Assembly: GCA_000310025.1 (NCBI GenBank)
Contig: FN649746.1
Location: 34,400-98,399 of the forward strand
Length of the DNA stretch: 64,000 nt
Direction of reading: 5' to 3'
From: Ectocarpus siliculosus
Lineage: Eukaryota; Sar; Phaeophyceae; Ectocarpales; Ectocarpaceae
A program made the translations under genes and the position numbers. Numbering within the stretch: position 1 is the stretch's first letter; each line of letters opens with the position of its first letter. Below the pieces are notes generated by a model that saw only the letters and a list, made by a program, of their open reading frames with translations, was not told where the DNA came from and searched no databases. Positions 22,975 through 49,553 of the stretch are shown here, in pieces.

Positions 22975-25935
22975 TCAGACCCCTGCAACCCCGCTCTGGT
23001 GGTCATCGTCCAAAGCTTTAGCCACCATGACATTGCAGGCGCGTTCCACCTGGCCCGGGCGCCAAGGCTTCAGGATGACTTCGTCCCCCCCCGCGTCTTG
23101 GAACGAACTTCGTACACCTTCTGTAACATCGGCGGTGCAGCCGCATATGGTGACCCTAGGCCAACCGTTGGCGGCCTCGAGCACCCTGATCCTCCTTGTG
23201 CACTCGATCCCGTCAAGGTTTGGCAGGTGAAAGTCCATGAAAATTCCCGCAAGAACTAGGCCCCCCGATCCACCGACACGGACGTGTCGTGCCGCCGTTT
23301 GCACGTCCAAGGCCATCAAGCCGTCGGTGGCGGACAAAACCTGCACATCGGCGCCGCTGCCCCTGAAATGCCGCCGAATCTTGTGTTCAATGAGCTTCAC
23401 GTTCACTGTGTGATCGTCTACAACAATCAGTGCAATCTTGCGGGATCCGATGTTGTGGCAAAAGGGGGTCGATGTTGCTTTGGTCACAGCCTTTTCAGTG
23501 TCCTCACCAGCATTAGAACCGGCATCGACGACCGCTCCTGCCTCTTCCACAGAGCACAGGGGTAGTATCACGGCAAACAGCGTTCCCCCACTTGTGCTTT
23601 CCTCGGCAAACGTGGAAGCGATCCCGAGAGCACCGAACATCGCCTCCACATGCGCTTTACAGATGTGGAGGCCCAACCCAGTGCCAGCGTACGACTTTTG
23701 AACGCCATGCGATACCTGCTTGTACGCTGCTACAAGATGCGGGAGGTCCGCCGGCAGAACACCAACCCCGGAATCTTCTACACAGTAGACATGCCACCTT
23801 GCATCCTGAGATGCTACGGCCGTCATGTCGCCTGTGGGGCTCCCTATCCACGTGCTGGCCTCGAAACGATTAGTCTCCTTGGTCCACCAATCAGTGGCGT
23901 CTTGCAGGGAATCGAGAACGCGATGGGATGCCGCCACCTTTCCTCCCCTGGGGGTGAACTTGATGGCGTTGTTCACCAGATTTTGCACAACAGTCTTGAT
24001 GCGCCGCATGTCCCCGACTACCTCAAACGTATCGTCCGGTGGTCCGGTCTCCGCTGTGAGCTCAACCGACTCGGTGATGGCGAATGGTTTCATGGCATCC
24101 ACCGCCAGAAGGATTGGGCTGGACGCGGCGAAACGGCGGCGAGCCACCTCCGTGTTGTTGCGATTTTTCGCGATGTCGAGAATATCATCGAGCGTGGATA
24201 GCATCGACTTTCCGCAACGTACAGCAGAGTGAATGGTTCCCAGCTGTTCTTCCGCTTCCATGGTTCCGTGGCCCTCCTCCAGCATCTCGAGCGACCCCAT
24301 CACGCCATGGAACGGGGTGCGAAGTTCATGAGAGACGTGCGCAAAAGTTTCTTGCTGGGCGGCGGGCAGAGCATCCGCGTATATCTTCGAGGAGAATCCG
24401 CGGCGCACCATGTTGAGGAGGTCCGTTGTCGCCGGCGACCACAACTTGAACGGCACCGCTGGTGTTCCCATGAACTGTTGGAAGGATGCTCTGGGTCGCA
24501 CAACCTCCCCGTCATGCATTATCGCCTCAGGGTTGCCCGCCCACTTGATCTGGTCGGCGATGTTCTCCCGAAGGAAAACGATCAGGAAGGTGTTTACAGA
24601 GAAAAAGGCGACGCCTTTTGCCTCCAGTGATCGAAAGCACAAGGTTTCGCCAGGCCCATCCCCGTTGAGAAGCTCAATGCACTCACTCAGGGTCAGGGAG
24701 ATGTCCTTCTTCCCATAGACGGTGGCGGATCGGGAGTGCTCGTACAGGACAATGGTGTCGACCTCCAGGATATCTCGCAGTGCCTGATGCTCACTAGAAA
24801 GGAAATCATTTACCCTGGGGTAGTCCTTGAGCCTTCCAAGCATGCGCGACAAGGCGAGAGCAGTCGTCGCGATCTCCTGCCGCTCGTAGTGCATGATGAG
24901 CGCACCAGTTAACGTCACCGTAGTTTCCGCCAGTATACGCTCTTCGCATGACGGATGTACGGCCCTTGTGTAGGCGTGAAAATTGATGTTCCCCCACAGC
25001 TCGCCTCCTACCGTGATGGCCACGGCCATCGAAGCCCTCACTCCCATGTTGCGGAGAAATTGCTCGTGGCATGGCGACGGAGCCCTTAAAGCACTCCTGG
25101 ATAGATCGAGAGGGGTCGAGGATCGCTCGGGAATGGACCTTATGGCCACCCTCTGTCCGGAGGTGTCCGCGATGAAACTAACGCCCTTTAGCATGAGCAA
25201 CTTCCGCGCGATGGGAGGAATATCCGAAGCTGGGAAATGACAGCCCAAAAATGAGGATTCAACTTCACAACCCGGCTTGATGCATTCATGAATGACCTCG
25301 CCGTGGCCGTCTGGGGCGAAACGGTACACTACAACCCTTTCGTACGCAGGCATATTTTCCGCGAGCGCGTCACACAGGGCCGCCGTCGATACCAAAGAGT
25401 TTGACCCGACGGGAATACACCCCATGAGATCGGTCATCTGCAGCAACCCGGGCGTATGCTGGGCTCGGGCGCTGTGAGGCCCATGCTTCCGCTCCACTTC
25501 CACCAGATATACCCCCGGGTTGCTGCCTGTCAGCGTGAAGGTGAACACTGCTTTGGTCGGATCATCTTCCTCTCCTGGCACGAGCCCGGCGTGTGCGGCT
25601 GCTGGGCACGAGTAGATGTCGGCCGTGGTCCTGTTGACCTTTGGGGAGATGCGGTCATTGCGGGGTTGGCTGGCTTGCGTGTAGCGCGTGACAAGAGCCC
25701 GCACGGTTTGCACGCATTCTTCGCGCAACATGTCGCCTAGATCTTTGCCTAGAATGTCGGACTCGGAGCTGGCTTGGACCCATGGGGCCTCCATGATGTT
25801 TTGGCTTACGGTCACAATGCGCAGCCCCGAAGGGTAGCCCGTGGTGGTTTCTTGGACTGCAAACAGGTAGCCACAGCCCTGGATGTGCCCAATCTGGGCG
25901 AGTCTCTCGGGATCCCCACTACAGCTGTGGCTCAT
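22975..25935 (-). CDS. PHY: phytochrome hybrid histidine kinase
   Basis: A single uninterrupted frame of 986 residues from the ATG at 25935. An N-terminal PAS is followed by a GAF with PASDIP (Asp238) and the bilin-ligating region SPCHEQFLRNMG (Cys289-His290). The PHY tongue has WAGNP and PRASF (465-485). An H-box VSHELRTP follows with phospho-accepting His536. The N-box, DSGVG and GTGLGL (about 650-755) form the ATPase. A C-terminal receiver has Asp840-Asp841, phospho-accepting Asp901, Thr934 and Lys956. All catalytic positions are present, so it should sense light through a linear tetrapyrrole and pass phosphate from His536 to Asp901. A Cys at residue 5, before the IQGCGYL PAS start, sits where bacterial phytochromes attach biliverdin. 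The frame stays open upstream to 26268, but this ATG opens the recognisable PAS segment. There are no introns, unlike the neighbouring genes. Confidence 0.95.
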   Translation of the reverse strand: MSHSCSGDPERLAQIGHIQGCGYLFAVQETTTGYPSGLRIVTVSQNIMEAPWVQASSESDILGKDLGDMLREECVQTVRALVTRYTQASQPRNDRISPKVNRTTADIYSCPAAAHAGLVPGEEDDPTKAVFTFTLTGSNPGVYLVEVERKHGPHSARAQHTPGLLQMTDLMGCIPVGSNSLVSTAALCDALAENMPAYERVVVYRFAPDGHGEVIHECIKPGCEVESSFLGCHFPASDIPPIARKLLMLKGVSFIADTSGQRVAIRSIPERSSTPLDLSRSALRAPSPCHEQFLRNMGVRASMAVAITVGGELWGNINFHAYTRAVHPSCEERILAETTVTLTGALIMHYERQEIATTALALSRMLGRLKDYPRVNDFLSSEHQALRDILEVDTIVLYEHSRSATVYGKKDISLTLSECIELLNGDGPGETLCFRSLEAKGVAFFSVNTFLIVFLRENIADQIKWAGNPEAIMHDGEVVRPRASFQQFMGTPAVPFKLWSPATTDLLNMVRRGFSSKIYADALPAAQQETFAHVSHELRTPFHGVMGSLEMLEEGHGTMEAEEQLGTIHSAVRCGKSMLSTLDDILDIAKNRNNTEVARRRFAASSPILLAVDAMKPFAITESVELTAETGPPDDTFEVVGDMRRIKTVVQNLVNNAIKFTPRGGKVAASHRVLDSLQDATDWWTKETNRFEASTWIGSPTGDMTAVASQDARWHVYCVEDSGVGVLPADLPHLVAAYKQVSHGVQKSYAGTGLGLHICKAHVEAMFGALGIASTFAEESTSGGTLFAVILPLCSVEEAGAVVDAGSNAGEDTEKAVTKATSTPFCHNIGSRKIALIVVDDHTVNVKLIEHKIRRHFRGSGADVQVLSATDGLMALDVQTAARHVRVGGSGGLVLAGIFMDFHLPNLDGIECTRRIRVLEAANGWPRVTICGCTADVTEGVRSSFQDAGGDEVILKPWRPGQVERACNVMVAKALDDDHQSGVAGV

Positions 25936-26348
25936 GTTTGAGGTTCGTTGTGGTTGGGTGGATGTGTATGTGACAACTAGACGGAGAACGGAGAAGCGTG
26001 CGACGAAAGCTACCAAGCCGAGGTACGCCGCACCTACCTCCGGAACCACATACGTACGTTCGAACTTCTCGAATGCCTCCAGAACTTGCCAGCAGATGAG
26101 TTCTACGTAGATTCTTAGAACCGCATACAGCACTACAAGTACATGATGCTTCCAGCGTTCAAGCGGAGCGGAGCGAGAGGCGAGCATAGCGAGACAGGCG
26201 GAACGCCCAGAGGCGCCCGGCCGGACGCCGGAGAGGGCGACAGCTCGGCCCACGGGGGTGAGGTCCACAAGCCTGAAACTCTTGGATTCTGCTGGCTATG
26301 CGGTAGGTGAGGAGACTACATGTACACCGTAGATACCTGAAGAACATC

Positions 26349-26450
26349 GGGTGGCTTCTTGGACTGCAAACAGGTAGCCACAGCCCTTGGATGTGCCCGA
26401 TCTGGGTGAGTCTCTCGGGACCCCACCGCAGCTGTAGCTCGTCTTGGGTT
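26349..26450 (-). pseudogene. decayed duplicate of the phytochrome 5' end
   Basis: About 100 bases align with codons 1 to about 34 of the phytochrome at 25935-25835, including the strings GGCTACCTGTTTGCAGTCC and CCCGAGAGACTC. The ATG has become ACG, one base is lost near codon 8 and one is gained near codon 20, so it cannot encode the protein. Similarity weakens upstream and stops abruptly downstream. It is a tandem duplication remnant of the gene's start or the leftover of a second phytochrome gene. Confidence 0.8.
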
Positions 26451-26688
26451 GGTGGTACGTAGTGATGTGTGGTTCTATCCGTCGTCAGCGTGCGCTCTCG
26501 GTTGTAGGTTCGGTAGTAGACGGATGGTCTGGTGTAACGAAAAAAAGACGAGCTGCTCGCATTTGCTGGATTTTTTTTTTTTTTTCTTAATATGACACAG
26601 CGAAACCATCTCTATCATAGAAAAGAGTCTGAGACAGATTAGCAATGGATTCATAGCGTCAGAAAGTGTGGGTGAACTTGACCTGTGA

Positions 26689-27924
26689 GGCCGAGTCTTC
26701 TTACGTCGTGATTATTTCGGGATTTTTATTGGGGGGGGGGATTATTTGAGCGTCTTACTACGCGGAGGGATTTGGCCAATTCCAAACGCCCAAATTCCAA
26801 ATCGCCGAATATTTCCTGGGATCCCAGCTGCCGCGTTGGAAAATAGGCCCATTTTCCAAACCGGATCGGCTGATAATTTCCAGTTTGGAATTGGGGGGGG
26901 GTACCCCCTAGGCACACCCCGATCGTGCCAGAACGAGGAACTACACCGTCTGCTGGCCAAACAGAGGCCAGTATCATTAGGCCATGCACAAACCCTCTGC
27001 AGGTATCAAAATTTCAGGGCGTTCTGCGTCGTGTTGGCCGCACACGAGCCGATAACGTCAACCCTGCCACATTGCTCTGCTGACGTTCTTGTCTTTGGGC
27101 CGAAAAGAGCCGTTGTTGTGCCTGCTACATGTGTGACCAGTCAAAACACACGCCAGAGAGAGGCCTTACGCCGTCGACATCTACAAACTGCAGCGAGTGG
27201 CGTGTGATCATATGCATACCCTCTGCTCGCGTCCCAGAAACAGATCATATTGTCCAGTTTTGATTGCACACGGCCTGTAAACGTGAACCGAAGTGCGTTG
27301 CGGCGTTGATTTTTTTTACTTTTTTCTTGTTCCGCCGCGTGTTTGCTCCGTGTGTCACCCGCTACTAGTCCACAACACATACCAGAGAGAGGCTTTCGGC
27401 CGCTGGCATCCACAAACTACTGCCAATGGAGTGTGATCATACACAATCGCTCTGCTCGCGTCCCGGAAGCAGAGTGTATTGTCCAGTTTTGATTGCACAC
27501 GGCCTCTAACGTGAACCGAAGTGTGTTGCGATGTTGACTTTTTTGAACGTTGCCTCTTCTTTTCTGGTTGCTACGAGCGTGAGTGATCAATCCACAACGC
27601 ATGCCCGAGAGAGGCCTTTGGCCGACGACATCCACAAACTGCAGTCATTGGCGTGCGATTATATACATGCCCTCTGAAGGCGACCCAAAAACAGGGCACT
27701 CGGTGTCTTGTTGGTCGCACACGAGCCAAAACCGTGAACTGAAGCATGCTGTGACCCACAAAGACTTGAATCGGCCCTTTTTTTCCCCTGACTGAGAAAA
27801 AATCTGTCTCGAGGAACCGTAAGAAGGTCGTTTGGATCCAGATCATTTTTCCCTTGCAGACCACCCCCCCCCCCAACCGAGAGAAAAAAAAATCTCCGAA
27901 ATAATCACAACGTAAGACTCGGCC
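26689..27924. mobile_element. TIR-bounded non-autonomous DNA element
   Basis: The left end begins GGCCGAGTCTTCTTACG and continues to GTGATTATTTCGG. The right end, read on the minus strand, begins GGCCGAGTCTTACG and continues to GTGATTATTTCGG. Each arm then runs into a G-rich tract (poly-G at about 26731-26740 and poly-C at about 27866-27875). A TGA triplet flanks both ends (26686-26688 and 27925-27927) and could be a 3-bp target duplication. The 1.24-kb interior has no open frame with coding character and is filled with tandem repeats. The superfamily cannot be assigned from this alone. Confidence 0.7.
26960..27780. repeat. about 225-bp tandem repeats inside the TIR element
   Basis: Diverged copies share a GAGAGAGGC core at about 27156, 27381 and 27607, each followed by CATC(T/C)ACAAACT, a TGTGATCAT-like block and GTCCAGTTTTGATTGCACAC or a variant. 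A weaker fourth copy starts near 26960. The period is about 222-228 bases. Confidence 0.8.
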
Positions 27925-29971
27925 TGAACGTTGTGTTTTGTGTTTTTGAAAACGAAAAAATAAAATAAAACTTTGCAGTTACGAAAATTGAGAAAAAGTC
28001 ATACGTAGTCGAGCCCAATTAATTTTAATTCTCTGGACTATTATACACTAACAACATATATATTTAGGTAGTCCTGTATTTTTATGTATATTTCCTAGGG
28101 TCAATTTGTAGGGTGAACTGCTGTAGGACCTCAGAACCCCAGCCTCGGCCAAACCTATAGCGGCCTTAAGCGCGAATGCTATCTGCTGTATATTCATGGG
28201 CGGGGAGAATCCTAATTCCGCAACGTTCGTTGTGCAGGGACTGCTCATCATGTACTTAGTTTTTGCTGCGGTAGACTGCTTCGAAAGAATGTGCGGCGCA
28301 ATCGTTGCTGCTTCGGGTTTGGGTAGGCAGTTCCACCGCGAGCCACGTACTCGTTCTCGTGACCGTTTGGATGCCGGATGCCCATGTCGCTAGTTGTCGG
28401 CATTGAAGTGTTGGTAAATGTAAGTTTACAGTAGTCAATGAAAACTCCGGAGGACTGTGGCTTTTCTTGCTTGGCTGCGGGCCCGTTCTGTCCGAAGGTC
28501 GCAAACGCTCACTGGCTCGGTATGTGTTTCTCGGTGATTACTCCAAGTTTTGTACAATGCATTATTTGTTTTCTCTTACAAAAGCATACAGAACTCTTTC
28601 ACAGATAACAGTGATGACTTAATATTTATTTCGTTCATACGTGGTAACCCCCGAGGGTGTAGAATACATTGCAAATCTATCGCGGGCTCTTCTTATCTGT
28701 GGAAGAGATGAATTTGTTGAGTTTTCGTTGTTGTTTTCTTCACATTGAAAACCGTTCCGATCTCTCTACCCAGTACCTCCATCTGTCCGCACTGATCAAA
28801 CACTTGACCAAAACATACAAAAAAAATGCCAACCGCTTGGATTTCAAGCTGCTTGCCACACCCGCTAAAATCGGACATGCCTTCATTGCGTACTCCTCTA
28901 CAGCCACCTACGGATCGCTTGACGATGCAAGCCACAGTTTGGCATGAAGCTGGTGGTATCCAACAGAGCATAGCATCCTTTCGTTGAGCGAGATCTGTGC
29001 TCTCAATTATTGGGGAGGGTCACCGACATGTAATTCGTTGTCAACGGCCCGGTACAGTATTGGCTTTCCTACGCCAGGTCGGGGCATCCGATCACATACT
29101 TCTCCTTGAGTTCGCAGCGTATCGATGCGAGACCGAGATCTCCCTACCCACTTGATCATGGCCGAAACCCGAAACTATCGTTCGCTGTCTGGGATGCCCT
29201 GTGGCTCCGATGGTAATCGTTTGAGTCATTGCAATGGGCATTTTCCGGTGATTTTCACACCTCTGTTGTTTTCGCCCTATTTCGATTTTCGATGCAACCC
29301 CACCTGCAATGTTACAGCCAACTCGATTTTGGTTTTTGATTCGAACTTCCCGTTGACAAGGGTGGCCCTAAACCAATCTCGCGACGAAACAAACTTAGTC
29401 AACCACCTGTGACCCCGGCTGACGGGTCAAACATATACACCGGGAGTGTAGCGCCAGAACAGACGGAACAAACTCACACACAGCAAACTACGCTCTCCGT
29501 TTGGTCAACGGTCAGCAACTCGGCCCCGCCTTAGTAGCTCCCAGCCTCGCGAGCGATATCAATGTCGGCCTTACTTCTGACAAACATAAAAACCAATCCC
29601 GCGTTGCTTGTACTTCCCATGAGCCATTGTCGAGGTGCACTGATAACGGTAAACGTCAAATGGTGAATACCTTGGTAGTCGGACCCTTCTTAACATTCAC
29701 CACCCTCAAATATTTTCTCTCAGGGGCAGGACCCAATTGGGACCCGGCCGGATAGTCCGATGTTACTCCGATGCTTGGTCCGGTCTCCCTGAGTTTATGG
29801 CTAAGGAATAAAAGAGGGCCAAGGGGAGAACTCGGTAGACAATTAAGTCACAGCAGACACAACATCTATTCACCATGCAAGCTCACCCACAGGGGGTGTC
29901 GAATAATTGAACCACGTTAATTCAAACAAACTTCTACACCCAGATTCTAAGCTGTATTTTTCAACTTTTCC
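27925..29971. other. intergenic between phytochrome and bilin reductase sides
   Basis: AT-rich in its first part, with no gene that I can support. It forms the 3' flank of the bilin reductase (stop at 29972). Confidence 0.45.
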
Positions 29972-32900
29972 TTACTCGCGTGGAAACTGCTTGTCGAAAT
30001 CGAAAAGGATCCCCGCGATCGCGGCCTCAGTCCACTCTGCGCCATAGAAACGGGTCAGCATCCCTCTTGCAGGGTCGTTTTCTCGCCTGGACAAATCATT
30101 GGGGTCGGGGGGCACGAGGATTAGCTGGAGATACCAAACTCATTTCGTGCTTGCCTTTTAGAGGGGTCACCGTCTGCAAACCACTCCCTACATCGTCCCC
30201 ACCGTTGACAGCCAAACGTCAATCATCTGGGGAGCCGACCTTCGTCATAGAGGCGGTCGTTCGGTGCCTCCACCGTGTGCATGTGCTCCAAAAGTTATCC
30301 GTGGTAGGTGCAGTGACGCCGTGTGGCACAAAGGGTTGCATCTAGACGTGTCGGTGGTATCTCATCCAACACACATGGCGAGGCATGCATACAGAGAACG
30401 TGCACAGTACATCACAAGAGGAATACAAAACGTTAACACGGCCTTTTCGAACCCAGGAAACCGGGCAGGGCGATTTGGGGCAGAAATTATGCGAGGGACA
30501 TCACATAAAAAAAATAGTGCGACACAGCCAATAGTGTTGACCGACCTGTACTTGCTGTACTCGGCGTGGCCCGAGGATATTTCCGCTAGCGGGCCGTCCC
30601 CCTCCACCGGCTCAGCGTCCTCAACAAGACGGAGGTACTCTCGAAGATAGTCCATCATAGCGTCCAGGGCTTTCTGCTCCACCGCCTGGCAGTGGCATTC
30701 GTAGTTGTGGAAAAGAGTCATGCACAGTAAAAATTCTGGCGTCCTTGGCTGTGGCAGCTGCTGTGGGGTAGCGGGCAGTTGCGATAGCGGGGCCCACCGG
30801 TGCTACAGTAGCAGTTGTGCTACCGAGGACGTTTAGAGGAGTAACGTCGGGTGCGGTATTTGGGGGCACAGTCACCGTACAGGGACTACTATGCGGATAC
30901 CTGGGTTTAACGATGATTTCGGGAAGGCGTTGGGTGTGGACAACAACACATGAAACGACCTTTTCTCGTCGTGGGGGTCAAGAGCAGCGGCAAAAACACT
31001 AGCCTGCTGGCCCGGCATGGAGGGCAACGCAGGCATAGGCGTTAGAGTAACGAGCGTTTCCATTATTATGCACACCCGATACCCGATACAGCAGTGTGAA
31101 AAAAGGTCGTGTGGACAGCGGCGAAAGGGCGGTTCATCGCACGTTGCTCGTGTGCGCCTACTTCACAGTCAAACGCTTGCAACCAACTCGTTCGAACGTG
31201 CAGATTTCATCTGCGAGACCCACGGCACGACACCTATCGAGACAATTGTCCCACCAGCGCAGCACGTCTGTCGAGCAAATCGAAGCGGCAATATCTCGAC
31301 GAGGGTTTCTTTGTTGAACAGAATCAAGATATCCTCGGCGACACACCAAAATAAGCCGCACGGTGGCAGAGCGAGACCCACGTGCTGAATATAGCAGTCA
31401 TATACAAAACAACATTCGATGTTAACCTAAGTTCGGAGTTTGTCGCGGATGCGAAGTATGTAGCGCCTCGTTGCCTTAGGGTCGTGCCATCTCCCCAGTA
31501 CAACGAATCCTCCGACTATTCCTTGTCCGGAGTTTCAACCGGTGTCGTTGCTCTGCGGTGGGTACTTGTTCTACAATGTCCCAACCCCACCTACATGCCG
31601 TTCGTTGCCTACAAGAGCGCTTTGACAGCTCCGGTGGTGCTGCAAACGACACCAAGAGAACCGCATCCCAATGTTCACTTGGCAACGCCAGGCTGGGACG
31701 AGGCACTCTCTCCTTGATACTGGAACAACGTCTTTAATTTCCTACACCACGTGGTCTTCAGCGAGGAACAATGTCGGAATCTGTTCTTCACGTGGTAGGC
31801 ATATTTCATCTAACCACACTGCCGCTGTATTTTCACATGGTAGGCATACTTTCATACCGTTGTGTTTTGATGTATTGCTGCCCCATCACTGACAAAAACA
31901 GAAAGAAAACCGCAGCCTTCGGTGACTCAAGATGCCTCACCCGAGGTGATAGGCTTTGTACGATGCTGTATAATTGCGTCCAAAACTCAAGCACGCACTC
32001 GCAGATCAAGAAACGGGGCGGCAAAAGCTACTCCACACCTTCCAGATAACTTCACCTCGTAAAAGGGTTTCTCGGCGCTCTCATGCTAGCACTGGGGTGG
32101 CATCAAGCGACACCTTCGGTACATAGGTGCAAACGCTACCGTCGACTTTCAAAGCTCGATTGCTCCCACGACGAAGAGGAATAGGAGTCAAACGATACGT
32201 TTTCCGGACAGCTCTCGACGAGATGGTTCCAAATCCGCCATTTTCGGCATCGCCACTCCTGCTGTGGAGGAATCGTGCGTTGACAATGGCCCCAGAGGGT
32301 AGAATAGCTTATTCAACCACCGCCGGTGTCTCACCTCCTTCGGATCCAGCTTCGCCCAGAGGCAGTGCGGAGAGAAGAACTTTTGCGCCGCTTCGGGAAG
32401 GTCACCCCCCCAAGGCAACGCCTCCACATGCCGCCTGAGCACCAAAAACACATCACGCCGAAACAAACACCGACACGCAAGAAAAACTCGTAGTTAACAG
32501 CAACGTGAAGACGGGAAAACGCCTGAGAATACAAGAACGCCCCCTACGTGAGCATTCAAAAAGGCCACCTTAATATTATAATAATTCTCGACAAGCATTG
32601 TGTCGGCATCGACGATGGGACGTTTCTGCGGGACTGACAGCTGTTGATGTGAAACGCGGAATCCAGGGGAAACATTGCTTGTGCGCGAGGGGGGGCGGGT
32701 CGCAGGGTACGGAGGACAAAAGAGGCTGGACGTTCAGACGAAGCACACAAGGACAAATTGCTCCCACACTTGGGCTTGAGTGGTTCTCACAAAGCAGGGC
32801 AAACGCCAAAAGCACGAGGCAGCAAAACAAAAGGAATAGACGAGGGCAGCGAAAAACTAAAAAAAATACGACAGGAGGGATATGGTGTGTTCCTTCGGAT

Positions 32901-35211
32901 GGGTTTGTGTGGAAACGGGGGGACTGGAAACAGGCCAGTGGCTTATGCGCAGTAAACGTGAAGGCGAACAACAACCACAAAAACAAAAGCAACCCCAGGC
33001 AAGCAAAGTCACTCAGGCTCTCACTTGTAGGCTTCGTGCATGGCTTCATCGGCCTTCGCGTCTAGTTGCTGAGCCGGGTGTGCAGGCTGCAGGTCTATGC
33101 AGATCAGATGCACCCCCGGAAGTGTCACGAGGTCCGCTCCGAAGATGGGCAAGTCGTAGCTGTCCAACGTGAATCGCGCGACATGATTGATGCCGTCACG
33201 TAACGGGTTGAAGAACTAGTGATATTGACGCTGGCTCTATTTTCATATTTAAATCCAATATAAAGAAAGAAAACAACCTTTCCGCCGGAGGAACCTGGTG
33301 CGTTCTACTGTCATCAGTAGAGAACACTATGAAGAGGCATCGTGCGTGCCGGCACGTTCAGGTGTGCTACTGGAGCTGAAATATCGAAGGTCGCAACAGC
33401 CTCTGAAAACAATCCGAAATCTGCGCCGGAACCAAGCGGAATCCAACCTTTGTCATAGCCTTGCTCACCGCCACGGGCCGTAAATCCCTGAACGGAGGGT
33501 TGTCAGCAGTAGCTAGTGGCATCAGCTACTGCTGAAAACCCGCACTTCAGGAGATTGGGGTCGGTGGTGGCGAGCACAAGCAGTACAACACGCTGGGTGT
33601 CGGTCTAATTTGCGGAGAGTTACGGAGATTGTAGACCACTACTACGACCCTTGATATGATATCACCACCGCAGAAGCAGATTTGAGCGCACAACACACAC
33701 ACCCCGCTGGTATAGGGTGCCCTCTAGTGATATTAGTACAACGCACCAGGTTCACAGCAACACCGACCTTGTTTGAGCACCTGCCGTTTTGGCTCTTTTG
33801 ACTTGAATTTAGAACGATGTGAATTTTTGTTTGCTTTCAAAGCAGGTGTGTGGAGGTAGACGCGTGAAATGTATGTCTTGAGCAGCCTCTACTGCCGCCC
33901 TGTCCGAGAATCAACGATTTCTGTTTTTCGCAATGCCTTCCGACTGGTCTTGGGTGTCTGCTATGCAGATTCTGGTGCTCTTGTGTTTGTTTTCAAAGTT
34001 GGTCTACATAAAATTATTTGTCTTCAACCCTTTTAGTAATCTAGTGTTGCAACACCTCAGCCGCACGTTGACTCGTATTAGAGTATGGGATCAACGAGGT
34101 CTCTCTGCTGCGATCAGCCAGAGGCTCTCACCCATATCAACGACTAGCACTTTCGCGTCGATTCATCTTCAAAACATCTTCGTCCTTGCCGCAGAGCGTA
34201 ACCTCGTGGGCAACCAATAAACGCTATGACACAACCTGAAGGAAAAAAAATGGTTTCGCCGTCGTCGGTGTCTAACGAGGGGCGAGATGGGCTATTTTCC
34301 TCGACCCCTCGTGTATTCCCGTGTCGTTGGCGGTCAGTTGAGAAGAAACTTACCTTGTCTCTCTCCTCCTTCAGTGTGCTTACACGCTTACACAGAGGTT
34401 TTCCCCGCCCCGGGGACGACTTTCTTGTGTCCCCGGTGTCGGATCCAAGAACAGTTCGAGCGGTGATGTCACCCACGTCGTACCGACAGGTTTTGCGGTC
34501 AAAAGCAAAACATTTCTAAACGTCGTGTATACATAGCTCTGCTAAGCCGACACTACACTCGCCCTATGTTGCAGACCTGTCCGTCGTGTACGTTGATTCG
34601 CACCATATACTGTAGCTTATAACTTGTGCAGGCGGTACAGTAAGCCATTGGACGAGGCGCGTATGTATCTGATCTGCACGAAAATGAGGGGCACGTCACA
34701 CGAACCTGGGGCTCGGGAACATGACGAGGTTTAGCACTTGGGTAGCGTGGTCCGTCTCCACCAAGGCTGCCCGAACCTGTCGGAACTTTTTTGACCGGAA
34801 CGCTGTGATGCTTGTCTCCACGGTCTTGGTTCGGGGAACGACGATACACACACAGCCACGAGATCAGGAAAAAACATGCAGACTTACGCATATGCCCAAC
34901 CAGAGAAAAAAAGCGCAAACACCCAAACTAGAGGGGGCACCGGGAAGCAGACACGCACGACTACCGGCTTGGTTCTAAACATCCACATGTCAACAGAAAG
35001 GGCACCAGTGTACACAACGGGACAGCACTAACGATAACAGGCTGCACACGGCTTGCTGTACACCTGATCTCTATACCCCCACGCACCTGCAAATTGCGCC
35101 CCTTTCCTACCACGGCACAGTTCCCCTCCAAGCCTTCCGGGATCGGGTAGGGTTCGAGCCCGATCTCGCTCTCGAGCAAGCCCATGGCCGCGTCGTACAG
35201 CCGGCGATACG

Positions 35212-35245
<34 letters not shown>

Positions 35246-35512
35246 CTCTACCGCTGCCGCAGCCTCCGGGACACCAGCCTTAACGGAGGTTGCTTCCACT
35301 ACGGTAGCTGCGGCCGGTGTTGTTGCCTCGTTGTGCCTCGCGCTGACACCGTCCTCTTGAGCCGTGGAAACGCCCTCGCTAGACGCAGCGGCCGCCGCGG
35401 GGCGCCGTGATCGGGAGCGGCGGTTGTTGACGATGACGCTTCGTGTGGTGGTGGTTGGTGCGGTGGAATGGAAGCGCTGCCTCGCCGGCGGAGAGGGGAT
35501 AAACGCTGACGC
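29972..35512 (-). CDS. ferredoxin-dependent bilin reductase, plastid-targeted (PebA/PebB/HY2 family)
   Basis: Six minus-strand exons join with matching phases: 35512-35087, 34824-34706, 33159-33025, 32434-32335, 30685-30546 and 30086-29972 (TAA), 344 residues from the ASAF motif. The enzyme family reduces biliverdin to phycobilins or phytochromobilin using ferredoxin. Family landmarks in order are [51 protein letters not shown] with the catalytic Asp of [20 protein letters not shown], and [13 protein letters not shown] with the second conserved Asp. The Ala-Ser-Ala-Phe at the start of exon 1 matches the heterokont plastid-import motif. The signal peptide that should precede it must be on a further upstream exon I could not find. 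A GC triplet repeat encodes a Pro run at about 35215-35245. Product specificity (PebA, PebB, PcyA or HY2-like) cannot be fixed from motifs. Confidence 0.9.
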
Positions 35513-37493
35513 CTGTCGTTGCGGATATTGAAGGTCGATGTCATCAATAGCAGGACCCAAACGTTGACTTCTCTTCCACATGCTATCCAACCGACCTGGA
35601 CCACAAGCGTACCCACGGTAATCTATTTAGGTATGCAAACGAGATACCCGTAGTGCTTTTGACTGGACACGGGCCACGGAGGGTGGCGTACAGGGGCTAT
35701 GGTAGAAAGACACAGCGACAGGGCACACCCTACGAGAAGTGGCGGACATCGGAACCTGCCAAGGTCACTTCACATGTTTCCATGCGCACGCACCGTGTTC
35801 GGCCACGGGGTCATGTCTTGGACGGGCGGAGGCGGCATACTCCGCTCTCTACATTGCGGCGCTATGATTCAATATTGTATTATAGTAGTTGTTAGGACGG
35901 CGCCGATGTTTGCAAATTTGTGCTGAACTGCGGACGGCTTGTTGCCGGACGTTCCCCATGTGAGGTCCTGGGTGCGGCTTTGCTATTAGTGTCCACCGCA
36001 CCAACCGGCTGACAAGGGAAACATGCATCCGTCGCACTGCGGCTAAAAACGGAAAAGGCTTCTGGAGGCCATGTACGTGTGTGTTCTTTACTAGACATAG
36101 ACCACGCACATCGGCTGACCTATGAAAAGACGTCAGTCTTAGGCCCAGTATTTAACGATGTTAATCAGTAGAAAACTAAAAATAAAACACGACCTCTGAT
36201 TGGTCGAAGACAACCAAAAGACAAGCTGTTGGAGTTTTTCTGGATTACAAATCTGGATTACAAGTCAGGGAATCAAAATTTGAAATCAATTTTTTCCCGC
36301 CACAGAGCCAAATTTGATGCTGTGTCTTAAAACGCCGCTATACACTAGCTTAGTAGCGGGATAAGAAACGCGAGCTCGCTTGCGTATCAAGGCTCTCCCG
36401 GTAAGGCAGGAGGGGGCGCGGAGGAGGCTGGACGATGCTCAAAGGTCCTGCTTTCCGGATTCGAGAGAGAAGACTCAGCACACCACCACAATAAGCTACT
36501 GGTACTCCGTAGTAGCATTGCCACTGCATTATCTGGCCCTCCTGTGTTAATGCAAAGGATCGTTGCCCTGCACTGGACTCCCTATCCGACTTCTCTCCAG
36601 TGGGCTCTGCTCTGCATAGCTTCAGCACGCCTTCGATTCTGCCCCTGGATTCTGTACCACAAGCAGTACGGTATTTACATGTACACCATCCTTCGGAGGT
36701 CCGTGCCATCACTGCTGTATTTTGTTCCTCCAATTTTGTCGTTGTCGATGGAGGTGTACGATGGAAGATCTGGTGGATCGAAGCCCAAACTTTCTTCCAC
36801 GCCTCCCCCTCTGTGTGTATGTGTCGCCCTTCACATGTTGTGTGTTGTGTTCACACAACAGCAGCAGCAGCGTGTTCCGCCCACCATCCTGCTAAAATGT
36901 AGTGCTTCACCGAACACGGCCATCTTGTTGCGGAGGTTGGATTCGGAGCACGTGTACATGTAACCAAAGGTCGTGAAAGATCCGAGGAAGGGATGTGTCT
37001 TCCGCTGGACCTCCTACTGCAGTAGCGGGTTCAAAGCTCCGCTGGCATCTTCTCGACAAAGAGGCAAGCCTCCCGCCGGGGAGGCTAAATCTTCAGCAGT
37101 AATACCACCGCAACAACCAAAGTGACTCTCCTCTTGGCTGCTGCTGCTGCTGCTGCTGCTGCTGCACGTTGCAACGAGTGGTAGAGATAGATCATCACCT
37201 GTCTTGCAGCGCAAGATAGAAGCACCGAGCACAAAATTAGCGCGTACCCGCATCGACCGCCGCGCGGTGTGGCTTCCATGTCGATCGGGATAGAGAGGAG
37301 CGCGGCAAGTCGAGCAGTTGGTGTGCAACAATCACAATCACATGCACATGGCCGAACACACAGCACAGAGGGGAGGAATGCGGGGGGGCACAAATATGTC
37401 AAGCATATCGCGGAGCCTCCGATCATTGCCGCGTATCTCTCCCCTGCCTGTCCCACCCCGTTCCACTGCACACACGTTCCTGACGGCTTTGGT
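35513..37493. other. region between divergent genes; holds dispersed repeat
   Basis: This separates the bilin reductase (minus) from the phosphofructokinase start (plus). It should contain the missing signal-peptide exon of the reductase and both promoters. Candidate CCAAT-type boxes (GATTGGTC at about 36197) are visible but not decisive. The 36430-36815 part is a dispersed repeat. A GCT/CTG microsatellite sits at about 37137-37165. Confidence 0.45.
36430..36815 (+). repeat. dispersed repeat family R, copy 2
   Basis: Partner of 18690-19020: shared ordered blocks include TTCCGGATTCGA, GTAGCATTGCC, ACTCCCTATCCGA, TTTTGTCGTTGTCGA and GGAAGA(C/T)CTG. This copy is longer by a few insertions. It occupies the interval between two divergently transcribed genes. 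Confidence 0.7.
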
Positions 37494-40400: not shown

Positions 40401-43400
40401 GTAACCTCCAGATCCACCCCATACCCTCGTGCAAAAACAAAGCTTAGTATGCTCGCAAGGCTACTGTTTCCTAATATATTTCGTTTGAAAACCAACGTTA
40501 ATGTTTTCGGAAAGCTACTGCTGCTGTATCCTTACGGTGTGGTTTTATGTCGTTTGAAAATGAAGCTTCATATCCTGGCAAGGCAACTGCTGCTGCTGCT
40601 GCATCCTTACCGTACGTCGTTTGCGCCTTCCTTGCTTCCTTTCTATTCCGGAAGGACCTCTCCCGGGAGGTTATTCGACGGCGGTGGGGGTCTAAGGGAA
40701 AACAGCAGCAGCAGCAGCAGCAGCACGGAGAGGCTGCGGTGTGGGGTGGCCGACGCTCCTTGCGTCTAAAGGTTCGGAAAAGAGCTGTGGTTGTGGTTAT
40801 CCTGGCGGCGAATTTGGTTTTCGATTTTGGTTCCACGAAGCCGGCTCTTTGGCTCTTGAAGCGGGTTCTTGTTCTCGTTGCTGTTGCTGCTTCCGCGATG
40901 TATGCCCTTGCTAATTTGTGCTGTCTTCGTTTTGTAGGGTACAATACAGTAGGACGTCTCGACGAGTTTGGCCATGGTGGCAAGCCAGGGAGTACAGGGA
41001 CGTCCGAAGGGCGTATAGTGGCGGGATTTCGGCGTGGACAGCTCTTAAGGTTTGGCGTAATGTTGAAATCGTCTCTTTACATCGACGCATGAAGGGAAGG
41101 AAGGTATGGTCTAGAGCATCTCTTTCATGGCGGTGCGATCGTTTCAACGCATGTGTTTTCTTCGTTTTCCACAAAATAAAACAAGTGAAACGTTTCTGTC
41201 GAGGCTTGTGTGTCCGAGTATAACAAACGGTTCATAAAACATCGTACGCTAGGCCAAGCGATGCAAGGCATATTTCAAACAATCTTCGAAAAACAAACGA
41301 ACGGTTGCATGTGCTAAATGCGAAAAATTCCAGAATTAACAGGAAGAAAGAACAAAATTTAAAGAAAGCACCCAACAAAAAACAATTACGTATGTAGAAA
41401 GTTGTTGCGCCTCTGCAAGAACGAAGCAAAGAAAGACAAGGACTGCTTACGCATGAAAGCAACGTTGTTTTACGTTGTGAAGACCAGGCAGGGGACACGC
41501 AGACTCTAACCCTAACCCGGACGTCTACTCTTTATCCAGTATGTTTGCTCACATGAAGAAACCTGCGTAGTGTTGAGTAGCGGGTGCTTTGCGTCAGAGG
41601 CTGCGGGGTTGAGGTTGACTCAAGACCTTGATATTCGAGTGCGCAGGGCATACTTGCCCATGCACGCAGAAAGGGGTTCTCCCTTCTACTAACACATACC
41701 AACATGATACACGAAACCCCCCTACATCTCCGTAGATCCGTACCTACTGCTGAGTACACCTAAGACTACTACTGCAAAGACCAATTACCACTCCAACAAA
41801 AAAGCGTTTCACACACTGGTGTTGTGCTCCCACCCTACCTCAGGCGGAGGCGACAGGTGTGGCGTTCGGTGGCGAGGGTCGAGCGATGGACCGAGCGTCA
41901 CAGGCTGAATCCAAGTACAGAGAGGCTTTGGAGGAGGCGTTGCGGGCGGCCAGGGAGCACGGGGACTCGTCGCCTCAGGCGGTGGCCGCTTGGGACGTTG
42001 TCGACGAGATCGAGGTGAACTGCCCATGTGAATGGTTATGGTTGGAAGCTTTGCTTCGTTGTTGACTTCGTTTTGTTTAGTAGCCTTCGTGAGGATAGTA
42101 AGCTTGGCCTTGGTTTGAGCAGGGGGTTAGGGATAGGGATACGAAACCGCCCTCTCTATGTCATGGGTTAATTATTAAATACTCCCGAAAGGGGGGAGGG
42201 GTGGGTAGAGGGCATCGGGGAGAGGAAACCTTCTGTGTGACCACGGGTTGGAGTAAACGGCACAACTGCTGTGAGCACTGATTTGAAGTCAAGACAAAAA
42301 AAAAAGAACAGAAAAAAAAAAGGATGTGGAGACCTCAGGTGAGCTACAGTTATTCCCTCCCCCGTGCCTGTGATGCCGTGGGTCGTTCAGCTGTGGCGGT
42401 GTCATTTGACGCTATTGAAGAGCAAGTCGGCTCCCCTTTGACAATGATGTGTCTCGTTGTCTGGGTGCTTGTCGCCGCAAACAGCACGTGTCCTTTGCAC
42501 GCGCATTAGTTGACCGGTTCGTTTGCGGCATGACGTTGCCCCTCGAATGCTTCCGGCAGCTTCTTCTCCGCTACAAGCGTTCTCTACTGCAACAGTGCTG
42601 ACGTTATTCGCACAACAACTGCAGAGTTGTTCCAGCGCATGATATCGGAATGGTTTCTCCCTCTCTGGCAACCCCCCGTGATCGCTATCCTTGCCAACCC
42701 TTGCCTTTGTGGAAATCCCTATGCATATGCATATGATACGACACCCGAAAGGCGTTGTACGAAAGCCGAATTCCCCACAACGAAGCCTTTCTTCATCAAC
42801 CCCGTGCTACCCCTACCCACGCGTGTTTGGTGTTTTTTGTTATCGTATCTCACGCTTGCCTTCTGGATCGCATCCCCGCTCGGAAGGCGTCGAATAACTC
42901 GATCGCGTGGAGGCCGGCCCTGGACCAGGCCTGCTCTGTAGCTGGGGAAGGGGGTGAGCCAAGAATATCCTCGAATACGGCTACGCGGGCATTGTCTTCA
43001 TTTATTTCTATATTTCTTTACTCCATTAGTATTTGTTTACCAATATTCTTTATTATTTTCTTTCTTTCTGTATTTCTGTATTTATGTACTTATTTATTCC
43101 TTCCTTTCTTTCTGTATTTATTTATTTATTTCGTACTTACGTTCTTGCTTGCTCTTACAATATATTTATGTATTCCTTCCTTTCTCTCTTCCATGCTTCC
43201 TTTCCTTTCCATCATTCCCTTGTTGCGGTGAGCGTGTCACGACGGAGCTTCTGGTGTGGTTCGGTTGGATTACCACTAAAAATTGGCCTCGATGTCGGCT
43301 CTTGCTGGTCTCAATCCACCTCTACCTTCCCTCCGAGCGTGGCTGTACTGCTGTAGTAATTCAGGATACCTAAACATGTCTTCAGCGACACGTCCAGTAA

Positions 43401-46400
43401 CTTGGTCATGGCTGCTTGTTAACCCAGACCCAACCTTTGTGTGCACAACGGACACGCCCAAGGACACCATAGAGAGAGTTGTTTGAACCTTCATCTTTCT
43501 TGTCTATCCTCTTCGAGGAGAATCCCTTCAACAAAGTGCACCTTCTCTTTTGCTGCTGTCTTCCGTCCGTACCGTGCCTTTACATGTGTGCTTGCCTGCG
43601 TTCCTGAAATATGTGCTCCACAACGAACGCTTCATCTTGCCGACAAAGATGACATGGAGCTGTGCATGGAGTACAACAAGGACTTGGATCGCCTTAAGGA
43701 AATTTTGCAGCCATCCGACACGGCTGAGGAGGAAGAGCGGGAGAGGTATGTATGCATATGATCTACAACAGCAGTATCTAGGGTATTAGTTTCGAGCGTT
43801 GGTGTTGTTCTTTGTTGTTCCTTCGTTGCTGTTGGTGGTGGTGGTGGTGGTGGTGGCCATGGTGATTGTTTGCTGCTGCTGCTGTCCTTGCTGGTGGTGG
43901 TGATGGTGCTGCTATTGTCATTGTCACCATTGCCCTTGCCATCGCGATTACCGATATCCATGCACGTTCCGACCAAAGACGAAGAGATAAATACGATGGG
44001 ACATGAATGGCATAGGTCTATGTACAGCCGGGTGTGATCTTATCGAAGATTAAGATTTCGAATCCCGATTTTAGCTCCACTTTTAAGAAAGGAAGCGCCC
44101 GATCTGTACAAATCTGAATGCAAATGACCCAATCTGTTGTAGCAACAGACGTGCAAAAGTCGGAAGAGAAATCATTCAAGCTGACCACATCAAATACACA
44201 CACAACAGGCCGGCAGGCCAGAAAACCCCATCTCTTGATCTCGATCGATACTGACGTGAGTCTTGCCCTTTGTCGCAGTCGATGCTGGTCTGATCAATTA
44301 AACACGCGCGCGCACAAACACATGCGAACGGCCAGGTTTACGATCGAAGAGATCGTGCCGGTTCCGGTGCCGAACCTGAAAACCAAATTCAAGCCTTCAG
44401 GGGTTGCCAACCTGGATATCGCGTCGGACAGCCTTGGGAGCGTTACCCACTACACCAAGCTCATAGGGGAGCAAGACATCGTCTTATACGGTGATGATGC
44501 GTGACATTCCTTGACGGTTGACATTTGTGATGGTATCTATCCGCTTCGACAATGATGCGTGTATACTGATTTCTCGATTATGATCTGCTTTGACTTGTTT
44601 TCACGGTTGAGAGTTGTAATGATATGCCTTGATTTGTTGTCACGGTTGGAATTTGTGATGGTATCCACTTTAGTTATTACACGGTTCACTCACTTTTGTT
44701 TTTTGTCGGTGGTAACGTCGTGGTATGTGCATTGGTATTTTTTTATGATGCCATGATTCCATCTTAGCAAAGATCAGTGAGATTTCGGTCAATTGCCATC
44801 TCGTTTCGATTGTGTGGACACGATGGCGTATCCTCCATGCAAGAGTGCCATCGCGTTTTGGTGGAACATGACGAAAAAGCTCTACGATGGACGATGAATA
44901 TAGCATTCGGCGTGCGTGTTATTTCAAGAGCTATTTCATGCTGCTGTGCTGATGACAACGACAATGAATGTGCTGGCGACGTCGGTGTTACCGTACCGTA
45001 TTCCGTACCGTACCGTTGCAGAGCACGTTCGAGGCCCCGGGAGGATGCCGGCTGCGAAGGGCTTTCTCCGAGCAGGTGTGCATGCGAAGAGAGAGGGATT
45101 AATGTTTCAAACCAAGCTCGGTCACACAACCAAACCCTGGGTAGTGGTTCAGCTGATGCTCTAACCTCGTGTAGAACATTGAATTTCTGTCTCGAGCTCG
45201 GGAATTCGAGTTTTTAATACGGAGTAGAATTATGTACTCCCAATTTTGAAGCGATTACCGCATCGTCGTGAGTGCACACAACAGAGAGATGGTTGGGGCT
45301 GCTGAACCCTCCTCGCGTCTTATGGCCAGCGCCGCAGGGGGGAGTTGGAGAATCCCTCCTGTCTGTGTGGCCCCCGCTGGTGCTTGAAGCACACCCGCCA
45401 TTAGGTGTACACTGGCGCCCAGAATATAGGTGCGACGGGAAAAAAAGTAACAAGCCCCGAGCGCCGCCTTTCGTCTTGCGTTTTTCACCTTTCCACGCGC
45501 GCTGCGGAAAGCTGTACCTGCTATACAAGCAATGTGGTGACCAACAACGATCGCACTCCATTTTTAGGCGCTTCTTGCTGTTAGTGCCGACGGTGTCTTG
45601 TCTGGATTTGAGGCGTCGGATCATTGTCAGCACTGTGCATAGCCCATCTCTTGCGGTGGTTACAGAACAACTGATAAGAATAACATCGAAGTCAGGTCCT
45701 TGCAACTGATACTGTACATGGCTGTACTAGTTACGTGAGCAGCTGTTTTATCATGACAGGGGCGCATGCGGGTTGTTTAAAGCGACTGAGCTTCTGTCGA
45801 GCTCTTGGAAAGCGTGTGATGATTGTTGTGAGTGATGCACGGCTCATGTCGCCATCTTCCTTTGCAAGCGTGCACATCTCTCGAACGCAAGCTGTAGACG
45901 TTTTTTCCGTGCCACAGAACTGACAAATCGAGCACGCCTCCATCGCGTTTTGCTCCCCCCTTATCAATACCCAGCTTTTCTTACCTTTTTCATGTCCGTG
46001 CGTTCATGGCTTTGGCGGCCCCAACCATCGCATGACCTTGTGTTGAAGCCCCAGTGGGGTTGTGTGAGAACATTGGGTCCAACGGAGGTGCACCCAGCCA
46101 ACCTCTCTTGCATTCCGAAGCCAAACCCAGTCCCCCACACCAGCATTGACAAAACAAAGTATTGACAGTCCTATATATATCTTAAATGTGTTCTGTGTCC
46201 TTTTAGGGCCACGGGCATCGCTTCATTTCAAGCCTACGGAAGTCCGCGCCGCCGTGGTGACGTGCGGGGGACTGTGCCCGGGATTGAACAGCGTCATCCA
46301 CCACCTCGTGCTCACGCTCTTCAACATCTACGACGCCGAAAAGGTATGTATTATGAATGAGACTTCGCCAGAAATGGATGAATGAGACTGGCCAACAAGA

Positions 46401-49400: not shown

Positions 49401-49501
49401 TGGCACTCGATTGTGACGAGGGCAGCAACCCTTGTCTTGTCTTATTCTGCCGTACCCATGTTCCTCTCTTGACTCTTGTTCGTTTGGTGTCGTCAGAGTC
49501 T

Positions 49502-49553
<52 letters not shown>

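What the first reader, a model, noticed from the sequence alone, without database searches (positions are those of the whole stretch)
22975..35512. Phytochrome and bilin reductase genes side by side in a eukaryote
A complete phytochrome kinase and a plastid-targeted ferredoxin-dependent bilin reductase lie on the same strand, about 4 kb apart, with only a small transposon-like element between. Bilin reductases make the chromophores phytochromes need. Such pairing is familiar in bacteria (heme oxygenase next to bacteriophytochrome) but not expected in an intron-rich eukaryotic nucleus. It may be a chromophore-photoreceptor gene neighbourhood, or chance.
Basis: partly seen in the sequence, partly recalled or inferred. 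Interest (0 to 1): 0.85.

Follow-up and report, generated by a model that had tools for sequence, protein, structure and literature searches.

The report
Phytochrome gene beside bilin reductase gene
In what looks like a brown alga's nuclear genome, a light-sensor gene sits next to a gene for an enzyme of the kind that makes light-sensor pigments; both genes are real, but the closeness is most likely chance, and the enzyme's type raises a testable question about which pigment these algae use.

Summary
On the minus strand lie an intronless hybrid-kinase phytochrome (25935-22975, 986 aa) and, 4,036 bp upstream of its ATG, the end of a seven-exon, apparently plastid-targeted bilin reductase (modelled 37279-29972, 371 aa). 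A high-copy 1.2-kb inverted-repeat element lies between. The reductase is nearest PebB/PEBB, not PcyA or HY2 by residues, and is below NCBIfam's PEBB cut-off; it keeps the three key residues of Guillardia PEBB. PEBB's textbook product, phycoerythrobilin, gave photoinactive phytochrome in published work, so 'it makes the neighbour's chromophore' needs biliverdin as substrate (as HY2) or a PEB-to-PCB isomerase (as Galdieria). For a pathway link: three kindred phytochrome copies carry the GAF cysteine that takes A-ring-reduced bilins; a fourth, in an apparent provirus, does not. Against a selected cluster: head-to-tail genes, no shared promoter, a transposon between; the other FDBR and the four other phytochrome loci are unlinked; the 4e-4 chance figure is post hoc. 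Gene order in other brown algae could not be tested. Verdict: two genes of known kinds, probably of one pathway, adjacent probably by chance.

The parts
22975..25935 (-). Phytochrome hybrid histidine kinase gene, intronless, 986 aa from the ATG at 25935 (PAS-GAF-PHY-HisKA-HATPase-REC); the open frame extends to 26295 upstream of the ATG
   Evidence: motifs FPASDIP, LRAPSPCH, PRASF, SHELRTP
29972..37279 (-). Ferredoxin-dependent bilin reductase gene, PebB/HY2 lineage (PEBB-like), 7 exons by my model, 371 aa
37199..37279 (-). FDBR exon 1 (signal peptide; least certain exon)
   Evidence: hydrophobic stretch ALILCSVLLSCAA joined to [14 protein letters not shown]
35087..35512 (-). FDBR exon 2 (ASAF-type plastid targeting motif, linker, start of the reductase)
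34706..34824 (-). FDBR exon 3
33025..33159 (-). FDBR exon 4 (carries the Asp equivalent to Asp-99 of GtPEBB)
32335..32434 (-). FDBR exon 5
30546..30685 (-). FDBR exon 6
29972..30086 (-). FDBR exon 7 with stop (carries the Asp-219 equivalent; the Arg-215 codon spans the exon 6/7 junction in my model)
26699..27917 (.). DNA-transposon-like element with terminal inverted repeats, high copy number, lying between the two genes
26350..26424 (-). Partial duplicate of the phytochrome 5' end (38 and 40 nt blocks 97% and 90% identical to 25843-25880 and 25877-25916, about 507 bp apart)

Best explanation
Two independent nuclear genes happen to be neighbours. One encodes a phytochrome hybrid histidine kinase. 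The other encodes a bilin reductase of the PebB/HY2 lineage with a plastid-type presequence, which should reduce the A-ring of a heme-derived bilin. They are probably parts of one pathway: the reductase makes an A-ring-reduced (ethylidene) bilin in the plastid, the bilin leaves the plastid, and the GAF cysteine of the apophytochrome binds it. Each gene has its own promoter, and the adjacency itself is most likely coincidence. Shown: both genes, their arrangement, the transposon, the catalytic residues and the chromophore cysteines. Inferred: splice sites, targeting, product of the enzyme, chromophore of the phytochrome, and that position is chance.
For: Head-to-tail arrangement with a 4,036-bp gap and a mobile element between: no shared promoter, no operon. 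PHY is one open frame, FDBR has seven exons. Unlinked counterparts: the other FDBR (C10) shares no contig with a PHY match, and of five PHY loci (C21, C434, C70, C16, C12) only C21 shares a contig with an FDBR match. By blastn the fetched stretches of C434 (9,000 of 12,324 bases) and C70 (9,501 of 224,582) align to the window only over the PHY coding region, plus one 71-bp and one 31-bp piece for C434. Pathway link: the FDBR has the Asp-99, Asp-219 and Arg-215 equivalents of GtPEBB, which that paper found essential (the two Asp) and critical (Arg) (PMC6755814 abstract and sections 8, 10, 13, 14). The three kindred PHYs carry the GAF Cys and the provirus copy Ile; GAF Cys binds ethylidene bilins and the N-terminal Cys binds biliverdin (PMC11879098 section 3).
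Against: The expected number of such pairs by chance at this distance is about 4e-4 if tested alone. PebB-type enzymes use 15,16-dihydrobiliverdin and give PEB, photoinactive on Cph1, and wild-type GtPEBB, which has the same Arg-215, only degrades biliverdin unspecifically, so the pathway link may fail. The phytochrome also keeps an N-terminal Cys and could bind biliverdin directly. No heme oxygenase was found, though these searches cannot show absence.
Confidence: 0.65

Rival explanations
1. A selected chromophore-photoreceptor neighbourhood: the two genes stay together because shared chromatin or co-inheritance keeps apoprotein and chromophore synthesis in step.
For: Naive chance of this proximity is about 4e-4; same strand; both genes look intact and the FDBR keeps its active-site residues; GAF Cys matches an A-ring-reduced bilin.
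Against: No common promoter; mobile element and a partial duplicate in the gap; the other FDBR and the other four PHY loci are unlinked; post hoc choice of the pair. Among the papers listed (10 of 24 listed; 10 of 15 listed), no title or abstract start describes such a neighbourhood in a eukaryote, which is weak either way.
Confidence: 0.12
2. The reductase serves something else: with the second FDBR it makes PEB or another bilin for a plastid role (regulation of chlorophyll synthesis, bilin signalling), while the phytochrome binds biliverdin through its N-terminal Cys like diatom, fungal and bacterial phytochromes. (Not exclusive with chance adjacency.)
For: Closest to PEBB; wild-type GtPEBB does not reduce biliverdin productively (PMC6755814 section 14); the PEB adduct of Cph1 is photoinactive (PMC10151467 passages); N-terminal Cys kept in C21, C434 and C16, the three copies whose N-terminus is in hand; ochrophyte PHY is said to be related to fungal PHY, and diatom and fungal PHY bind biliverdin (PMC13150293 passages).
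Against: GAF Cys is kept in all three kindred copies and absent in the provirus copy. The second FDBR has Ser and Glu at the two catalytic Asp positions, so a DHBV supply for PEB synthesis is doubtful. Recombinant Ectocarpus phytochrome is reported to photoconvert between red and green (PMC11774855 passages citing Rockwell 2014); from recall, that work used PCB.
Confidence: 0.3
3. The phytochrome is of viral origin and landed beside the reductase by insertion of a phaeovirus-like element.
For: PHY is a single open frame beside a gene of seven exons, and the same genome holds a phytochrome among long uninterrupted ribonucleotide reductase, replication factor C and lipase frames, about 100 kb from a capsid gene.
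Against: C21 PHY is only 26-30% identical to the provirus copy but 62% to C434 and 52% to C70; only one PF16903 capsid match was found, on C16; of the 30 window frames scanned only three had a Pfam match (two phosphofructokinase, one weak CP12), none viral. Li et al. 2015 found the EsV-1 phytochrome outside the brown algal group, though without bootstrap support (PMC4525182 passage).
Confidence: 0.05

Closest known systems
PEBB of the cryptophyte Guillardia theta (PDB 6qwq; PMC6755814) and bacterial PebB
   Same: Best solved-structure match (E 3.4e-61); 46-48% identity to the PebB-type proteins of four cyanobacterial records and one record labelled Alphaproteobacteria; Asp-99, Asp-219 and Arg-215 equivalents present
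   Different: 262.5 bits against the NF009723 cut-off of 327; no phycobiliproteins known in brown algae (recalled); the candidate PEBA partner lacks the Asp pair
HY2, phytochromobilin synthase of land plants (tomato, PDB 6kmd)
   Same: Same A-ring-reducing lineage as PebB (PMC11879098 passages; PMC13193486 section 7); Arg-215 and the second Asp shared
   Different: HY2 has Asp and Asn at the two positions where this protein has Asn and Asp; far lower score (E 1.1e-23)
Ectocarpus phytochrome EsilPHL1 (Rockwell et al. 2014)
   Same: Brown algal phytochrome; the window protein is probably of this group (inference)
   Different: Its sequence and paper were not available here, so orthology is untested
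Bacterial bacteriophytochrome-heme oxygenase operons and bacterial pebA-pebB pairs
   Same: Functionally related bilin genes side by side; pebA-pebB adjacency is visible in 5 of 5 bacterial genomes
   Different: Here separate transcription units in a nuclear genome, 4 kb and a transposon apart; the heme oxygenase pairing is recalled, not tested
Galdieria sulphuraria PEBA/PEBB plus PEB:PCB isomerase activity (PMC13193486)
   Same: Organism with PEBA- and PEBB-lineage reductases and a need for PCB
   Different: Red alga with phycobilisomes and active PEBA and PEBB; the isomerase gene is not identified there

Membership tests
Phytochrome (hybrid histidine kinase type) | GAF and PHY domains with DIP and PRxSF motifs | tested here: met
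   PF01590 37.7 bits and PF00360 28.0 bits, both over cut-off; FPASDIP and PRASF (motif names recalled)
Phytochrome (hybrid histidine kinase type) | N-terminal PAS domain | tested here: inconclusive
   PF08446 18.2 bits, below the 21.4 cut-off, but in the right place
Phytochrome (hybrid histidine kinase type) | HisKA, HATPase and receiver domains with phospho-acceptor His and Asp | tested here: met
   SHELRTP; MDFHLP in the receiver
GAF-Cys phytochrome (PCB/phytochromobilin type) | Cys-His in the GAF chromophore motif | tested here: met
   LRAPSPCH in C21, ECH and SCH in C434 and C70, PIH in the provirus copy; bacterial relatives have SPIH at the aligned place
Biliverdin-binding phytochrome (bacterial/fungal type) | N-terminal Cys before the PAS domain | tested here: met
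   Cys 14 residues before the IQ glutamine in C21, 12 in C434 and C16; spacing in known bacteriophytochromes is recalled
PEBB (15,16-DHBV to PEB) | NCBIfam equivalog cut-off (NF009723) | tested here: not met
   262.5 bits against 327, though it is the best of the six FDBR models matched
PEBB (15,16-DHBV to PEB) | Asp-99, Asp-219 and Arg-215 equivalents | tested here: met
PEBB (15,16-DHBV to PEB) | DHBV as substrate, PEB as product | not testable with these tools
   needs the enzyme assay
HY2 (biliverdin to phytochromobilin or PCB) | HY2-like residues Asp/Asn at the PcyA His-88/Asp-105 positions | tested here: not met
   Asn/Asp instead; compared with one HY2 only
PcyA (biliverdin to PCB) | Glu-76 and His-88 | tested here: not met
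   Ala and Asn; NF002760 97.3 bits against 206
Secondary-plastid targeted protein | Signal peptide followed by an ASAF-type motif | tested here: met
   [24 protein letters not shown] in the spliced model, seen by eye; no targeting predictor was run, exon 1 is uncertain and the motif rule is recalled
Chromophore-photoreceptor gene cluster | Shared promoter or operon-like spacing | tested here: not met
   head-to-tail, 4,036-bp gap with a mobile element; transcripts not tested, no RNA data
Chromophore-photoreceptor gene cluster | Conserved gene order in relatives | not testable with these tools
   no other brown algal genome is held; the own genome has no relatives here

The most novel reading that the evidence does not exclude
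In brown algae a PebB-lineage enzyme has become the phytochrome chromophore synthase: it reduces biliverdin itself at the A-ring to phytochromobilin (an HY2 function reached independently of plants), because the PEBA-like partner has lost its catalytic aspartates. The gene stays beside the phytochrome that uses the product, and the phytochromes switched to the GAF cysteine accordingly, while the phytochrome of a resident phaeovirus-like provirus kept biliverdin attachment at the N-terminal cysteine.
Probability: 0.15. Interest if true: 0.7.

Novelty: new member of a known kind. Interest (0 to 1): 0.35.

Why it matters
Which bilin brown algal phytochromes carry in the living alga is not settled in any paper text I could read here. 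This genome gives a concrete candidate enzyme (a PEBB-like A-ring reductase), a doubtful PEBA partner, and a contrast in chromophore cysteine between the kindred and the provirus phytochromes. Together these make the question testable by one co-expression experiment. If PEBB became an HY2-like enzyme here, plants and brown algae would have reached the same solution separately. The neighbourhood itself would matter only if gene order proves conserved.

Tried and rejected
Viral insertion as the source of the window phytochrome: rejected as unlikely. Only one capsid match in the genome, on C16, and the window copy is far from the provirus copy.

Typing the FDBR by tree: not relied on. A 21-row tree put the window protein with the five PcyA rows (96/93) inside an unresolved 13-row group that also holds the PebB rows, GtPEBB and HY2; the PcyA stem is 5.1 long and the program warns of long branches. 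This result speaks against PEBB typing; it conflicts with pairwise identity (46-48% to five PebB-type proteins, 26-31% to four PcyA) and with the profile scores, which I follow.

Heme oxygenase in the genome: no match with PF01126 or with one cyanobacterial heme oxygenase at E up to 1. The family rings in 3 of 14 control genomes, but an intron-split gene can be missed, so nothing follows.

More FDBR loci: PF05996 gave 4 exon matches at two loci; a cyanobacterial PebA query gave one match, C10.

Rows dropped before counting phytochrome loci: of the nine rows, C25:987913 and C16:4534368 match only the kinase or receiver part and were not counted; two rows of C70 and two of C12 were each counted as one locus.

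Viral relatives: one scan of viral contigs with the phytochrome alignment gave two contigs at 24-26% identity from 47 candidate stretches; not followed.

Gene order in other brown algae: no way found with these collections.

Papers sought but not held: PMC3956157, PMC5388591, PMC4826011, Frascogna 2023, PMC5603387.
Full report
WHERE. The window is G000:C21:34400-98399 of a 189.5-Mb, 492-contig assembly.

THE PHYTOCHROME. The minus-strand frame 22975-26295 is open over 1,106 codons. Its likely ATG is at 25935; the C434 copy aligns from the third residue after it. Pfam finds GAF, PHY, HisKA, HATPase_c and Response_reg over cut-off and PAS_2 just below. The best solved-structure relatives are bacterial phytochrome kinases. 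I count five phytochrome loci in the genome: C21 (this one); C434 (62% identical, 12.3-kb contig); C70 (52%, one in-frame TAG, and its last part displaced by about 700 bp); C16 (30%); and a C12 match with six stops (C12 is not among the PF00360 matches). C16 lies among uninterrupted ribonucleotide reductase, replication factor C and class-3 lipase frames, about 100 kb from the only PF16903 capsid match found, so I read it as a phaeovirus-like provirus. The kindred copies C21, C434 and C70 have Cys-His at the GAF chromophore site; C16 has Ile-His, as have the bacteriophytochromes aligned. C21, C434 and C16 have an N-terminal Cys before the PAS domain; C70's N-terminus is missing from its frame. 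According to PMC11879098 (section 3 read), the GAF Cys takes phytochromobilin or phycocyanobilin (A-ring ethylidene) and the N-terminal Cys takes biliverdin (A-ring vinyl).

THE REDUCTASE. PF05996 matches three exons here and one exon of a second gene on C10. A manual splice model gives seven exons, GT..AG throughout, 371 aa, with a hydrophobic N-terminus running into [14 protein letters not shown], the pattern of a protein targeted to a secondary plastid (motif rule recalled; no predictor run; no RNA). By NCBIfam the scores are NF009723 (PEB:ferredoxin oxidoreductase) 262.5 bits, NF009722 (same name) 195.3, NF009721 (same name) 97.5, NF002760 (PcyA) 97.3, NF009720 and NF009719 (PebA) 92.6 and 47.4; none is over its cut-off. 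The best structure match is Guillardia PEBB 6qwq, E 3.4e-61. It is 46-48% identical to the five bacterial PebB-type proteins recovered and 26-31% to the PebA (five) and PcyA (four) proteins of the same genomes. It has the equivalents of GtPEBB Asp-99, Asp-219 and Arg-215, which Sommerkamp et al. found essential or critical (PMC6755814 abstract and sections 8, 10, 13, 14). It lacks PcyA's Glu-76/His-88 and the residues seen in tomato HY2. A 21-row tree did not settle its place and, taken at face value, joins it to PcyA on a very long branch (see Tried and rejected).

THE SECOND REDUCTASE. C10 is nearest PebA (NF009720, 107.7 bits, cut-off 263). A signal-peptide exon with an ASFLSP motif lies upstream on the same strand (its splicing to the core is unverified). 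It has Ser and Glu where the catalytic aspartates should be. If PEB were made in this alga, C10 would be the expected DHBV source; its activity is doubtful.

WHAT FOLLOWS FOR FUNCTION. Wild-type GtPEBB binds biliverdin but only degrades it unspecifically (PMC6755814 section 14). The PEB adduct of the phytochrome Cph1 is photoinactive (PMC10151467 passages). So a textbook PEBB could not by itself feed the neighbouring photoreceptor. Two known routes would rescue the link. Galdieria turns PEB into PCB with an isomerase activity (PMC13193486, passages and section 7 part 1). HY2, which makes phytochromobilin from biliverdin, is said to derive from the PebB subfamily (PMC11879098 passages). The GAF cysteine in the three kindred copies, against its absence from the provirus copy, argues that an A-ring-reduced bilin is used. 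I therefore think a common pathway likely but unproven. A Petalonia paper cites red/green photoconversion of the recombinant Ectocarpus protein (PMC11774855 passages).

WHAT FOLLOWS FOR THE NEIGHBOURHOOD. The genes are head-to-tail, 4,036 bp from FDBR stop to PHY ATG, 2,817 bp without the element 26699-27917. That element belongs to a family with 46 other matches of 633 bits or more (81-93% identity) among the 73 rows. The gap also holds a partial duplicate of the phytochrome's 5' end. Ten further open frames tested at 27.6-30.3 kb had no Pfam match. With two FDBR and five PHY loci placed at random, 4e-4 pairs this close are expected; with an assumed 17,000 genes, strict adjacency gives 1.2e-3. 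These numbers ignore that the pair was picked because it looked meaningful: if one random neighbour pair in a thousand would look related, a genome of that size holds about 17 such pairs (an assumption, not a measurement). Within this genome the pairing is not repeated: the C10 FDBR has no phytochrome match on its contig, and the other four PHY loci have no FDBR match on theirs, though C434 lies on only 12.3 kb. By blastn the fetched C434 and C70 stretches resemble the window only over the phytochrome, apart from one 71-bp and one 31-bp piece in C434.

LITERATURE. In the held library I searched phytochrome with brown alga and bilin reductase (3 papers), Ectocarpus and biliverdin, bilin reductase with brown algae, heme oxygenase and gene cluster (10 of 24 listed) and PEBA/PEBB with Ectocarpus (10 of 15 listed). 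No listed title or abstract start describes this neighbourhood in a eukaryote. Key papers of 2014, 2016 and 2017 are not held, so the FDBR content of brown algae may well be in print. Multiple phytochrome genes in brown macroalgae and phytochromes in their viruses are already described (PMC13150293 passages; PMC4525182 passages).

VERDICT. Observation confirmed. The genes are of known kinds. The closeness is most likely chance, and the question that could overturn this, conserved gene order in other brown algae, is easily answered elsewhere.

Noticed in passing
L003 (G000:C16:4535500-4545000): Phytochrome hybrid kinase frame (938 aa) without the GAF cysteine, among uninterrupted ribonucleotide reductase, replication factor C and lipase frames, about 100 kb from the only PF16903 capsid match found: an apparent phaeovirus-like provirus carrying a light receptor.
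   Followed up: partly
L004 (G000:C10:3207500-3217000): Second bilin reductase, PEBA-like, with a signal-peptide exon upstream, but Ser and Glu at the two positions of the catalytic Asp pair: possibly inactive or changed in function.
   Followed up: partly
L002 (G000:C70:124500-134000) and G000:C12:3245334-3246368: Two further phytochrome copies that look decayed: an in-frame TAG and a displaced 3' part on C70 (an intron there is not excluded); six stops in the C12 match.
   Followed up: no
window 26699-27917: High-copy transposon-like element with 32-nt terminal inverted repeats (84% complementary) and internal direct repeats; 81-93% identity to 46 other matches of 633 bits or more.
   Followed up: partly
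window 41754-54746: Plus-strand exons of a phosphofructokinase (49625-49852 over the Pfam cut-off, 46068-46382 below it), preceded at 41754-42062 by a weak, below-cut-off CP12-domain match: a separate CP12-like gene or a CP12-PFK fusion.
   Followed up: no
window 55101-55787 (+) and 55986-56483 (-): Frames on opposite strands that begin with the same 60 amino acids as printed ([20 protein letters not shown]...), so an inverted repeat.
   Followed up: no
window 61318-63150 and 62712-63818: Long plus-strand open frames (611 and 369 aa) with no Pfam match; mobile-element remnant or unknown gene.
   Followed up: no
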